The translations under genes and the position numbers were made by a program. Below the pieces are notes generated by a model. The model was given only the letters and a program-made list of their open reading frames with translations. It was not told the origin of the DNA and searched no databases. A DNA stretch of 64,000 nt from Daphnia pulex (lineage: Eukaryota > Arthropoda > Branchiopoda > Diplostraca > Daphniidae): positions 4,402,001-4,466,000 of the forward strand of contig NC_060025.1 of NCBI RefSeq assembly GCF_021134715.1, written 5' to 3'. Every line of letters starts with the position of its first letter. Within the stretch, counting starts at the first letter, position 1. Shown in pieces: positions 25,895-31,633 of this stretch.

Positions 25895-25963
25895 TATCAG
25901 TTATTTACAGCCAAAGTATGAGTTTCATAAGAAATCAAACGGTAACTCGTTTTCACCTCAGCT
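25895..25963 (-). ncRNA. Box C/D snoRNA, family A copy, weak C box
   Basis: Homologous to the copy at 29078-29145 (shared ACGAGTTACCGTTTGAT and CTTTGGCTGTA). The D box CTGA is at 25900-25897. The C box position reads GAGGTGAAA in place of TGATGAAA, so this copy may be degenerate. Confidence 0.5.
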
Positions 25964-26035
25964 GAAGCGAATCCTACAGAAAATAAACCTTTCAGTAAAG
26001 ATACTATGTAAGAATGTAAGAATCTACTTTGTTTT

Positions 26036-26097
26036 TATCAGATCTTCTTAGAGGTAGACTGCTCATGGTTAATGCAGCACAAGTTTTGTCATCATAC
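26036..26097 (-). ncRNA. Box C/D snoRNA, family B copy 1
   Basis: C box TGATGA at 26094-26089 and D box CTGA at 26041-26038. The body is almost identical to the copies at 26479 and 29557. The guide next to the D box contains CCTCTAAGAAG, complementary to a conserved 18S rRNA segment as I remember it. Confidence 0.8.
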
Positions 26098-27061: not shown

Positions 27062-27399
27062 TAAATTTAAACTTTAAATTTACTAAAATAAAAACCATGC
27101 ATCAACCTACAAATGCATGGTTTGCATTAAAATTAAGAAAAACTTGAGAATCTTCCAACTTACATATTTTCTGCACCCTACTAGACATTTGAGGGCTACT
27201 TGCAACAGGATGTTGACACCTTGTCATCTCGGCTGAGCTGCGTCAAGTGATCCTGTAGAGCAATGTCGCCCATTGAAGAAAGCAATAAGCAAACCACGCG
27301 GAGCTTGGTTTGCTTCCGCTGCCGGTAGAACACATGGGGAGTGGAAAAGAGGGAGACCGGGTAAAGAAGAGTTGTCATTTTTCTTGTTTCAGTTATTAT

Positions 27400-28774
27400 T
27401 TCTTTTACGAACAAATAACTATTTGTGAGTTAATGACAGTTAAAAGACAACTAAAAAATTTAGAATTTAATTACTAGTTCATAGTTATATATATTTGTCT
27501 ATTTGTATGTTTGAAATTAAAAAACAATTGCAACGTCATCAAACTGATCGCATGTTGGATTTCGATTTTTCGAGTTCAATTCTAATTTTTTTAAATTTTG
27601 TTCTGATCTAAATTCACTCCCTTCGACCTTAGTTACCTATACTATATGGGTAATATAAGTGCTTAGGTTATCCATTTTTAATTGAAATTGTATACTAGAT
27701 AGAACTTTAGTAAACAACCTATGCGGGATAGTCGGATAAAAGAAGGCAAGAAGCCCAAGCTGGCGAGGAAAAACGGAGGGTTTTGGAAGTGGTAGCGGAA
27801 AAACATTAAAGATGAGTTACATATAAATATAATCCTGTTAAATTTTGCTCGAAGAATCATTAAGCGCTTTGTAACTTCAAAATTCTTTGTATTTGGTCGT
27901 AGGCCTACTGTCGTAGTTCGTAGGTTGTTGACTCGACCGACTCTTAACGATTCGCCATCGTGCAAAGTTGTCTCATATCCTATCCATATCTAATTCAAAA
28001 CTCGATTTTTAAGCACTTCTTTCCGTAGTAGAAGTTATCTTTGATCATTGTTGTTCATATTTTAGGGAGTGGTATTATATTAACCACGGAACTTGAAATA
28101 ATTTTTAGACTTCTCTTTTTAGAAAATCATAATCTTGCCTTATTTCTTTGCAATTGCGACTTCACGACGAGACAGAAGTTCGCTACTATATTGTGTTTTA
28201 ACGTTTAGTACTCAAAACGTAGAGTAATGTGCACAACTGAATCTTTAGAAGGTTCTGGCTAACTAAAATCGCAGGGAAATAAAAATCTGCTTTTCGCTGA
28301 ACCAACACAACTACACCTTCCGATAAAAAAGTAATGAAGCATTATTTGGGATTGTCCTACTACACCAATAACAACTCGCCCAAGATTGAAACTAGAAGAA
28401 TAGATTAGGGTTTTGTTATTACAGGAATTCCAATAAAATGAATGACGAAATATTCCGAGTAAATACGCTTTCTATTTGGAACAACGTGTCCTATCATATT
28501 AATTCTCTTTAACCCCGGACACTGGACATTTGTTCTGTATTAATAATCAATCAGCTGATAGAACTATGAATGACCATTTATCACCAATCTTTTGATGACT
28601 TTAATTATTTTCTCTTTTACATACACGTTTCCCTCGACTCGGGTCGAGTTCTATCAGTGCACTACAAAAATGAGGGAAAAAAAATGTACACGTAATTGGG
28701 TGTTGATGACGATAACCTCGATTTTTTTTTTACTAAACCCAATAGTTTGTTTATGGGTCAATGTTCCTCCCTTT
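27400..28774. other. Intergenic DNA
   Basis: AT-rich stretch between the snoRNA host gene and the 3' end of ATP synthase alpha. I see no supported exon or RNA gene. A 95-codon minus-strand frame (27678-27965) has no recognisable features. Confidence 0.5.
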
Positions 28775-31633
28775 TTAGGCCTGGAAAGTTGCTAAGAATT
28801 CGGTAACGATCTTCTTCAGCTTGGCGTCTGTCTCATCGGTGATCTTTCCGTCTTTGGCAATAGCCGTCAGGACATCTGCGTGAGTGGTCTTGATGTGTTG
28901 CAAGAATTCCTTCTCGAAGGCGGTGATCTTGGATGGGTCAAGTTTGTCCAAATAACCGCGAACACCACAGTAGATGACGGGAACCTGCTCTTCAATGGCC
29001 ATTGGAACTGTTAACAAAAATAAGAAGTTATAACCTACTCAGATTTTAAGAGATAAAATTAACCTTAATTTTTAAATTCTCAGATAATATACAGCCAAAG
29101 ATATTAGTTTCATATGTATCAAACGGTAACTCGTTTTCATCATTGTTTTGAACACCGACATTAGGTTTAAAAATGGATTTACCGTATTGGCCTTGTTTCA
29201 ACAATTCAGTGAGACGAACACCACGGCTCAAAAGCTGCTGAGTGGAAGCATCCAAATCAGAGCCGAACTGGGCAAAAGCAGCAACCTCACGGTACTGGGC
29301 AAGCTCAAGTTTCATTGAGCCAGCCACCTGCTTCATGGCGCGAGTCTGAGCAGCCGATCCGACACGGGACACGGAGAGACCGACGTTAATGGCTGGTCGG
29401 ATACCCTTGTAGAAGAGCTCAGTTTCCAAGAAGATTTGGCCGTCAGTAATGGAAATGACGTTGGTCGGGATGTAGGCAGATACGTCACCAGCCTAACATG
29501 AAACGCGAAATTAACTTATGCAACAAAAAGCTGTGTATGAAGACCATAAGAATATTAATCAGGTCTTCTTAGAGGTAAGACTGCTCATGGATAATGCAGC
29601 TTAAGTATTTCATCAATTAAACCATTATGCCCTTAACCATAGAATGGTGTATACCTGAGTCTCAATAACTGGCAAAGCAGTCAGGGAACCACCTCCATGC
29701 ACTTCGTTCATTTTAGCGGCACGCTCGAGCAGACGAGAATGCAAGTAGAAGACATCACCAGGGTAGGCCTCACGACCAGGGGGACGACGCAACAACAGGG
29801 ACATCTGACGGTAAGCAACGGCTTGCTTCGACAAATCGTCATAGATGATCAAAGCGTGTTTGCCGTTGTCACGGAAATATTCACCTGCAATTACATTCAT
29901 AACCATTAAGACAAAATGTTGAGAGTAAGCAATAGGAATGATAAATTACCCATGGCGCATCCGGAATATGGTGCCAAGAACTGAAGGGGAGCAGCATCGG
30001 AAGCAGTAGCAGCCACGACAATGGTGTACTTCATGGCATCAGAATCGGTCAAACGTTTAACGATCTGAGCAACAGTTGAACGCTTCTGACCAATAGCAAC
30101 GTAAATGCAGTAAAGTTTCTTCTTCTCGTCGGCACCGTCGTTGAAACGCTTTTGGTTGATGATAGCATCGATGGCAATAGCGGTTTTACTGTCAATAATT
30201 TAACTGGTTAATATAATAAATAATACAACTAAATTTTAATTAAACAAATTCTTTTCAGTACCAGAAATCCCTTTCTTTAATTATGATCAAAGACAAAGTC
30301 TCATATAGAATATTTTCATCATAATAAGATAAAAGCAGAACTACACTGAGTTTGATTTACCCAGTCTGTCGATCACCAATGATGAGCTCTCGCTGTCCAC
30401 GACCAATGGGGACAAGAGAATCGACGGCCTTGATACCGGTCTGCATGGGTTCGCGTACGGAGATACGAGGAATAATACCGGGGGCTTTAACACCGACACG
30501 AGCACTGTTGATAATAACAATTAATATGGAAAGCCATCAACTTGGTTGGACGATTCATACCGTTTGGCTCCAGCCAGGGATCCTTTGCCATCAATAGGGT
30601 TACCCAAAGCATCAACGACTCGGCCAAGCAGCTCAGCGCCAATGGGTACATCGACGATAGCTCCTGTTCGTTTTACAATGTCTCCTTCCTTGATGAGCTT
30701 GTCGTTACCGAACACGACGACACCGACATTGTCGGGCTCCAAGTTAAGGGCCATTCCCTGTAATTAGAAAATAACACATTAAAGTCTGCATACAAAACAC
30801 TTTTAAAGACAACTTTACCTTAAGCCCAGAGGAGAATTCCACCATCTCCTCAGCCTGGATGTTCTTAAGGCCATAGACTCGAGCAATACCATCACCAATG
30901 CTGAGTACACGACCAGTTTCTTCCAAGTTCTCCTACAAGTACAAGATTAATTTCAATTCATAAATCAACAACAAGAAATTTACCTTGGGAGCCGCTCCCA
31001 AAATGCGCTCTTCCAAAATGGAAGAAATCTCAGCAGCCTTGGCAGTTGGTGTTACGTGCAATTGACGAACAGCAGTCTGGATGGCTGGCAAAGACCTGCG
31101 TGCCACCTAAACAAGAAAGAATTTATTAACAAAGGAAGAAAAGTTAAATACTTGTCCAATATGCATTTCTTTATGAATATCAGACAATATATGCAGCCAT
31201 GGAGCATTTTTCAAGAGGTTCAAATGGTAACTCCTGGTGTCATCATATAAGCTACAATTACCATAGAACAGCTTCAAATTTTTCAAAAGCAGTGATTATT
31301 CACTAGTACAATGATTGTTTAAATTTATAAAATAGTTGTAATTTCCATCACAAAATTTAAAAGTGTTTTCCAGTTCTAAATCAAGAGCCTATAATAGTTG
31401 TAAATGAGTTATTCGATAGCGAAATATTTCTACAAGATGGCGGCTATCACGAGCCGGGCCGGCCGGTAAGACCATTTTTAATAGCCGAAGGTTAAAATAA
31501 TTTCCACAGGTAACAAATCTGCTATTACGTTCAAATTAATAATCGTCGTTCAGGCTATGCATTAGTAACTTACCTTTGGGACATTTTTAGGCAGCTGGCG
31601 CGCAACTGACGAGACCAAACGTGCTGACAGCAT
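28775..31633 (-). CDS. ATP5F1A: Mitochondrial ATP synthase F1 subunit alpha
   Basis: Nine exons, 5' to 3': 31633-31574, 31106-30984, 30932-30819, 30757-30561, 30504-30361, 30188-29950, 29884-29655, 29492-29183, 29007-28775. They total 549 residues in frame, the normal length. The N-terminus [20 protein letters not shown] is a basic, amphipathic mitochondrial import signal. The Walker A motif [15 protein letters not shown] is split by intron 5. Other family landmarks are [41 protein letters not shown] and the ATP-synthase signature region [17 protein letters not shown]. The subunit forms the regulatory half of each F1 alpha/beta pair and supplies the arginine finger ([10 protein letters not shown]). 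Introns 1, 5, 7 and 8 each carry a box C/D snoRNA, so splicing of this abundant mRNA should also release snoRNAs. Confidence 0.98.
29078..29145 (-). ncRNA. Box C/D snoRNA in ATP synthase alpha intron 8, family A
   Basis: C box TGATGA at 29142-29137 and D box CTGA at 29083-29080, with intact ACGAGTTACCGTTTGAT body. The intron is 175 bp and the snoRNA fills its middle, typical for intron-processed C/D RNAs. Confidence 0.8.
29557..29618 (-). ncRNA. Box C/D snoRNA in ATP synthase alpha intron 7, family B
   Basis: C box TGATGA at 29615-29610 and D box CTGA at 29562-29559. The guide CCTCTAAGAAGAC is identical to the two host-gene copies. The C-proximal half is more diverged. Confidence 0.8.
30253..30324 (-). 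ncRNA. Box C/D snoRNA in ATP synthase alpha intron 5, family C
   Basis: C box TGATGA at 30321-30316 and D box CTGA at 30258-30255. The D-adjacent guide reads GGATTTCTGGTA, one base different from the GGATTCCTGGTA of the host-gene copies, and the internal TTTGATCA box is kept. Confidence 0.75.
31178..31248 (-). ncRNA. Box C/D snoRNA in ATP synthase alpha intron 1, family D
   Basis: C box TGATGA at 31245-31240 and D box CTGA at 31183-31180. It is closely similar to the host-gene copy at 26991 (GGAGTTACCATTTGA, TGCTCCATGGCTGCAT). Confidence 0.8.
31433..31444 (+). promoter_or_regulatory. YY1/Pho-like motif CAAGATGGCGGC
   Basis: The core AAGATGGCGGC matches the known YY1 consensus. It lies in intron 1 of ATP synthase alpha, about 130 bp downstream of exon 1. 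Function is inferred from the motif only. Confidence 0.3.

What the first reader, a model, noticed from the sequence alone, without database searches (positions are those of the whole stretch)
25895..31248. Collinear snoRNA sets in a non-coding host and in ATP synthase alpha introns
Ten box C/D snoRNAs fall into four families. On the minus strand the ATP synthase alpha introns carry D, C, B, A in order. The neighbouring non-coding unit carries D, C, B, C, B, A. This is the same order with one internal C-B duplication. The simplest explanation is that the host unit is a tandem duplicate of the ATP synthase alpha locus (or the reverse) that lost its protein exons and kept its snoRNAs. A gene duplicate surviving only for its intronic RNAs would be a clear case of coding loss with RNA retention.
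Basis: partly seen in the sequence, partly recalled or inferred. Interest (0 to 1): 0.8.

Follow-up and report, generated by a model that had tools for sequence, protein, structure and literature searches.

The report
Matching guide-RNA sets in neighbouring genes
Two neighbouring genes, one coding for a subunit of the cell's energy machine and one apparently coding for nothing, carry related sets of small RNA-modifying guide RNAs in the same order in their introns, which points to one set being an old copy of the other.

Summary
The pattern is real. On the minus strand the ATP synthase alpha gene (28775-31633; 9 exons, 549-aa frame) carries elements A, B, C, D in introns 1, 5, 7, 8. The neighbouring unit (about 25701-27351) carries A, B, C, B, C, D, one per predicted intron. 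Nine of ten elements have canonical C and D boxes; the host D copy has a degenerate C box. D boxes lie 64-73 nt from the modelled 3' splice sites, though host acceptors were picked by eye. Host A matches both D copies (72-75%), so A and D look paralogous. C is U61-like: three of three copies carry 11 nt complementary to eukaryotic 18S rRNA, two nt before box D. Homology stops at the snoRNA edges. No ATP5A exon relic was found, but even the younger C-B duplication in the host has no clear flank similarity, so this absence says little. Collinearity, adjacency and strand favour an old tandem block duplication. That the unit is an ATP5A copy stripped of coding exons is the leading inference, not shown. 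Expression, related species and the source organism could not be tested.

The parts
28775..31633 (-). ATP synthase F1 alpha gene (ATP5A-like), 9 exons, 549-aa frame; exons 31574-31633, 30984-31106, 30819-30932, 30561-30757, 30361-30504, 29950-30188, 29655-29884, 29183-29492, 28775-29007
   Evidence: GT-AG model giving one uninterrupted frame. Identity as ATP synthase alpha recalled from the protein sequence, not searched.
31180..31246 (-). A_atp, C/D element in intron 1 (467 nt)
   Evidence: Box C ATGATGA, box D CTGA, D box to 3'ss 73 nt; 90% to A_host
30255..30322 (-). B_atp, C/D element in intron 5 (172 nt)
   Evidence: 77-79% to host B copies
29559..29616 (-). C_atp, U61-like C/D element in intron 7 (162 nt)
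   Evidence: guide CCTCTAAGAAG pairs with 18S
29080..29143 (-). D_atp, C/D element in intron 8 (175 nt)
   Evidence: 86-90% to D_host
25701..27351 (-). Predicted non-coding snoRNA host gene; predicted exons 27164-27351, 26825-26920, 26575-26647, 26363-26408, 26130-26187, 25957-25973 (doubtful), 25701-25829; pyrimidine-rich TOP-like start; AATAAA near the 3' end
   Evidence: Exons by eye, two boundaries moved after splice-site scoring; ORF test, Pfam scan; no transcript data; exon ends and start are predictions
26993..27059 (-). A_host, C/D element in host intron 1
26713..26783 (-). B_host1, C/D element in host intron 2
26481..26538 (-). C_host1, U61-like C/D element in host intron 3
   Evidence: sub-threshold Rfam DdR1 19.7 bits
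26256..26325 (-). B_host2, C/D element in host intron 4
26038..26095 (-). C_host2, U61-like C/D element in host intron 5
   Evidence: sub-threshold Rfam DdR1 26.2 and U61 19.2 bits
25897..25959 (-). D_host, degenerate C/D element (C box GAGGTGA), probably decaying
   Evidence: D box CTGA kept; 86% to D_atp

Best explanation
Two neighbouring genes on the same strand both carry intronic box C/D methylation-guide snoRNAs descended from one ancestral set A-B-C-D. Shown: ten related elements, same order and strand, canonical boxes in nine, conservation limited to the snoRNAs, no sign of a conserved protein in the second gene. Inferred: the set was copied as a block in an old tandem duplication. Most likely the ATP5A gene was duplicated and one copy kept only its snoRNA introns, shrinking into a UHG/gas5-type non-coding host. 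A further B-C duplication then occurred in the host, and its D copy is decaying. Mechanism of action (inferred from the class): each intron is spliced, the lariat is debranched and trimmed to the C/D ribonucleoprotein, and the C copies guide 2'-O-methylation at the U61 site of 18S rRNA (human Um1442). A/D and B guide other sites; for D a 28S site is only a lead.
For: Homology and order. Boxes versus shuffles. D box to modelled 3'ss 64-73 nt in ten of ten, and C box 34-41 nt from the 5'ss in seven of nine (A_host 104, A_atp 327; D_host donor undefined). The four ATP5A introns are fixed by the reading frame; the host sites are predictions (see evidence against). C guide: 11 of 11 pairs with an 18S fragment in three of three copies, placed so that the +5 rule (applied by hand) falls on the U61 site listed in PMC3511168 Table 1. 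A-A and D-D identity (86-90%) exceeds host A to D (72-75%), so A and D split before the two hosts did. One copy event explains the order more simply than four insertions in order into ATP5A introns.
Against: No ATP5A exon, promoter or flank similarity was found. Order alone could arise by chance with probability 1/24 to 19/180. Host splice sites were first picked by eye, so the even spacing is partly by construction: an ATP5A-trained matrix ranked the modelled acceptor first only for B2 and C2 and one 3 nt away for B1, while for A, C1 and D other AGs scored higher (they would give 100, 147 and 41 nt); the modelled B2 donor ranked third and the D_host donor lay outside the scanned stretch. A_atp gave no match to D at E <= 0.05. 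snoRNAs are known to move singly between hosts (PMC3511168). Neither A nor B had a convincing target in recalled rRNA. Expression untested.
Confidence: 0.55

Rival explanations
1. snoRNA-sized or intron-sized copies moved one by one (trans-duplication or retroposition) between ATP5A and a pre-existing neighbouring non-coding host, and the shared order is coincidence or was helped by local gene conversion.
For: Homology ends near the snoRNA edges. Single snoRNA mobility and cis/trans duplication are documented (PMC3511168; PMC2653536 passages; PMC2832892 passages).
Against: Needs four events that keep order and strand; order alone 1/24. I noticed no poly(A) tails or target-site duplications, but did not search for them systematically.
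Confidence: 0.25
2. The non-coding host is the ancestral home and ATP5A introns received the set from it.
For: Non-coding hosts with one snoRNA per intron are ordinary (Uhg genes, PMC4430873 passages). Intragenic A-D and B-C duplication is easy to imagine in such genes.
Against: I see no single event that would place four snoRNAs into four separate introns of an intact coding gene in the right order.
Confidence: 0.12
3. The unit is itself a protein gene whose introns carry snoRNAs.
For: A 73-aa frame spans predicted exons 4-7.
Against: That length is reached in 7% of 500 shuffles, and it falls to 49 aa (34% of 500 shuffles) if the doubtful exon 6 is skipped. No Pfam match above its cut-off in four translations; one sub-threshold ThrE_2 match at E 0.044.
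Confidence: 0.05

Closest known systems
U-snoRNA host genes (Uhg1-5, 7, 8 of Drosophila; gas5 and UHG of vertebrates)
   Same: Several introns, one snoRNA per intron, no recognizable reading frame (Uhg description: PMC4430873 passages), pyrimidine-rich start (gas5 as a TOP gene: title in a reference list).
   Different: Here the snoRNA array is homologous and collinear with that of the coding neighbour. Transcription not shown.
U61 / SNORD61 guide family (18S Um1442 human, Um1381 Arabidopsis)
   Same: Guide CCUCUAAGAAG next to box D; +5 position falls on the same U (numbering through recalled human 18S).
   Different: Score below the Rfam cut-off (19.2 against 55; DdR1 26.2 against 70).
lncRNAs that are fossils of protein-coding genes (PMC5577775); X-inactivation-centre genes such as Xist and Ftx (recalled)
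   Same: Coding loss with retention of RNA output is the proposed route.
   Different: No exon relic is found here. The main text of PMC5577775 has no occurrence of the word snoRNA.
RNase P RNA in an intron of ATPsynC of flies (PMC4287351 passages)
   Same: An essential non-coding RNA carried in an intron of an ATP synthase subunit gene.
   Different: Different subunit and RNA class, no second host.

Membership tests
Box C/D snoRNA | Box C (RUGAUGA) and box D (CUGA) with C-to-D length 58-71 nt | tested here: met
   Nine of ten have UGAUGA and CUGA (C_atp reads TTGATGA); D_host box C is GAGGTGA; shuffle control
Box C/D snoRNA | Terminal stem closing the kink-turn | tested here: inconclusive
   A scan for [AG]TGATGA with 3 or more closing pairs kept only B_host1 and C_host2 in the host and none in ATP5A
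Box C/D snoRNA | Stable nucleolar RNA bound by fibrillarin | not testable with these tools
   No RNA data
U61/SNORD61 guide | Antisense element to 18S CUUCUUAGAGG next to box D | tested here: met
   11 Watson-Crick pairs in three of three copies against the 18S part of L002 (4114-4124); 4 of 300 shuffles of C_host1 reached 11 anywhere in the 912-nt stretch. The 18S is of another eukaryote.
U61/SNORD61 guide | Rfam gathering score of snoU61 (RF01170) | tested here: not met
   19.2 bits against 55 for C_host2; so not filed as a member of RF01170, only as working like it
Non-coding snoRNA host gene (UHG/gas5 type) | One snoRNA in each of several introns | tested here: inconclusive
   Five or six predicted introns, one element each; splice sites are predictions, several not top-ranked
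Non-coding snoRNA host gene (UHG/gas5 type) | No conserved reading frame in the exons | tested here: inconclusive
   ORF lengths within the shuffle range, no Pfam family above cut-off; conservation across species not tested
Non-coding snoRNA host gene (UHG/gas5 type) | 5' terminal oligopyrimidine start | tested here: inconclusive
   CTCTTTTCC at 27351 read from the sequence; start site not mapped
Decayed ATP5A gene duplicate | Residual exon or flank similarity | tested here: not met
   weak test because the younger C-B duplication shows no clear residue either
Decayed ATP5A gene duplicate | Intact second copy or exon relics in a relative | not testable with these tools
   No related genome reachable; the genome search gave no answer in 15 tries

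The most novel reading that the evidence does not exclude
The unit is a tandem ATP5A duplicate that lost every coding exon and survives only as a dispenser of its intronic snoRNAs, next to the intact parent gene.
Probability: 0.45. Interest if true: 0.65.

Novelty: new variant of a known kind. Interest (0 to 1): 0.45.

Why it matters
How non-coding snoRNA host genes arise is, as far as I know, poorly documented. A parent gene and a stripped copy side by side, with matching RNA sets, would give a direct test of coding loss with RNA retention, and a natural experiment on guide redundancy: both loci keep a U61-type guide.

Tried and rejected
Rfam at gathering thresholds found nothing in the window. 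At E up to 10 in 24500-33000 it listed seven matches: four to the elements (DdR1 twice, U61, snR69 for B_atp at E 7.6), and sn2343 at 32500-32568 (E 0.28) and psRNA6 twice, taken as chance. ATP5A exon relics in the host: none; the best tblastn hit (E 0.17) lies in a C snoRNA and was rejected as chance. Flank comparison: 35 host/ATP5A segment pairs, 6 of them corresponding; p for those six was 0.03, 0.07, 0.85, 0.61, 0.12 and 0.43, while a non-corresponding pair also reached 0.03. Among the 21 within-host pairs the lowest p values (0.010 and 0.035) were non-corresponding pairs; the corresponding ones gave 0.114, 0.393 and 0.353. Promoter and 3' flank comparisons gave p 0.065 to 0.55 over four pairs. 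One search printed D-box distances from wrong D-box ends for the C and D copies; one search replaces them.

Ribosomal RNA of this organism could not be had. One genome-contig scan gave L001, which Rfam reads as two short partial 28S matches (4104-4250 and 1-371), of little use. Six viral contigs pattern scans gave L002 and L003, both; L002 holds the 3' part of a eukaryotic 18S joined to what looks like RNA-phage sequence. One search (ATP5A protein in viral contigs) gave no relative. Against the L002 and L001 pieces the A, B and D copies gave only runs with two or more G-U pairs (longest D_host, 16 with 6 G-U). B found no target next to box D; its 8-11-position match runs through box D, and a 15-position match of B_atp (2 G-U) runs through box C; both were set aside. 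One search looked for real 28S around the D lead and found none, so the lead stays untested.

Literature: 12 searches were sent, 10 answered; two were rejected for characters and rewritten as 31. No paper on these loci was among those listed; listings were capped (20 of 70; 25 of 51; 12 of 75), and the library holds only open-licence papers. Drosophila hosts of U61-type snoRNAs were not found. Passages of PMC13228274 and PMC11369213 were seen and not used.
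Full report
What was checked. I read 24500-33000, built the ATP5A gene model and modelled the neighbouring unit by eye, then re-scored the host splice sites. ATP5A has nine exons and one open frame of 549 aa. Introns 2, 3, 4 and 6 are 51-65 nt and hold no TGATGA. Introns 1, 5, 7 and 8 are 467, 172, 162 and 175 nt and hold A, B, C and D.

The neighbouring unit. On the same strand, 1.4 kb beyond the ATP5A stop codon, a predicted gene of six or seven short exons carries A, B, C, B, C, D. 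Box C starts and box D ends were located for all ten: the D box to modelled 3' splice site distance is 64-73 nt in ten of ten. For the host this is partly by construction, because its acceptors were first picked by eye. A small matrix trained on the eight ATP5A introns ranked the modelled acceptor first for B2 and C2, one 3 nt away for B1, second for A and D, and third for C1. Among donors it ranked the modelled ones first for A, C1 and C2, third for B2, and moved the B1 donor to 26824. The C box lies 34-41 nt from the 5' splice site in seven of the nine elements with a defined donor; the exceptions are A_host (104) and A_atp (327). For D_host the only candidate donor I saw overlaps its box C, and it lay outside the scanned stretch.

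Families. Identity between hosts, about C box to D box, is A 60/67, D 42/49, B 57/74 and 58/73, C 47/55 twice; within the host B1/B2 63/72 and C1/C2 52/54. A_host matches both D copies (72-75%, E 1e-6 to 4e-4); A_atp gave no D match at E <= 0.05. A four-way alignment shows 30 invariant columns. I read A and D as paralogues that had split before the two hosts did, and B-C as doubled in the host afterwards, unless gene conversion has made the host copies alike.

Chance. C/D patterns: 4 and 5 on the minus strand of ATP5A and host, against shuffle means of 0.175 and 0.105. Order: 19 of 180 arrangements, or 1 in 24. The order is thus suggestive rather than overwhelming; adjacency and strand add weight.

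Function. Three of three C copies carry CCUCUAAGAAG two bases before box D. It pairs without mismatch with the 18S part of contig L002, recognised as eukaryotic SSU by Rfam. The fifth base before box D falls on the second U of CUUCUUAGAGG (by hand). With recalled human numbering this is U1442, the site listed for U61 in PMC3511168 Table 1. Rfam scores for U61 and DdR1 remain below their cut-offs, so I call it U61-like. D has a lead in 28S from recalled sequence only; A differs from it by one base by eye; no target was found for B.

Origin. No ATP5A relic was found in the unit and the six corresponding segment pairs do not stand out from the 29 non-corresponding ones. This does not speak strongly against a gene duplication: the host's own later B-C duplication has likewise left no clear trace outside the snoRNAs (best corresponding pair p = 0.114). 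A single block duplication is simpler than four ordered insertions, and since ATP5A is the intact coding gene the likelier direction is ATP5A to unit. That remains an inference.

Coding status of the unit. The longest ATG frame is 73 aa in the seven-exon model (7% of 500 shuffles reach it) and 49 aa if exon 6 is skipped (34% of 500). Pfam gave one sub-threshold match (ThrE_2, E 0.044) in one of four translations.

Known background. Single-snoRNA mobility is argued in PMC3511168 (abstract, section 6 part 1 of 2, and section 8 read). Cis and trans duplication of snoRNAs: PMC2653536 (passages) and PMC2832892 (passages). Non-coding Uhg hosts: PMC4430873 (passages). Fossil lncRNAs: PMC5577775 (start of abstract and passages). 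RNase P RNA in an ATP synthase subunit intron: PMC4287351 (passages). The optimum distance of about 70 nt between intronic C/D snoRNAs and the 3' splice site is recalled from vertebrate work.

Limits. No RNA data, no relative, and no rRNA of this organism; the assembly search did not complete.

Noticed in passing
window 25897-25959: The host D element keeps its guide-like stretches and D box but has lost a normal C box; a weak 5' splice site candidate (GAG|GTGAAA) lies inside the same bases, as if splicing and snoRNA function compete there.
   Followed up: partly
window 30255-30275 against 26256-26276 and 26713-26733: The 21 nt up to and including box D are identical in both host B copies (GCAATGGATTCCTGGTACTGA) and differ in ATP5A B (GAAAGGGATTTCTGGTACTGA), so the ATP5A copy may be drifting or retargeting.
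   Followed up: partly
window 32420-37200 and 22400-25400: Neighbouring genes look like Treslin/TICRR (plus strand) and integrin beta (minus strand), and an LDL-receptor-related gene lies at 56-63 kb; names are recalled from the reading frames, not searched.
   Followed up: no
L001: A contig filed under a cyanobacterium MAG gives two partial eukaryotic 28S matches with long other sequence between them; it looks like an R2-type retrotransposon in rDNA (recalled), so probably eukaryotic contamination.
   Followed up: no
L002 3632-4543; L003 4059-4305 (Rfam limits; by eye the rRNA begins nearer 3815 and 4185): Two IMG/VR contigs join eukaryotic 18S fragments to what looks like RNA-phage genomes, probably assembly chimeras.
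   Followed up: no
window 16207-16297: Three tandem copies of a 30-nt unit, 93% matches.
   Followed up: no
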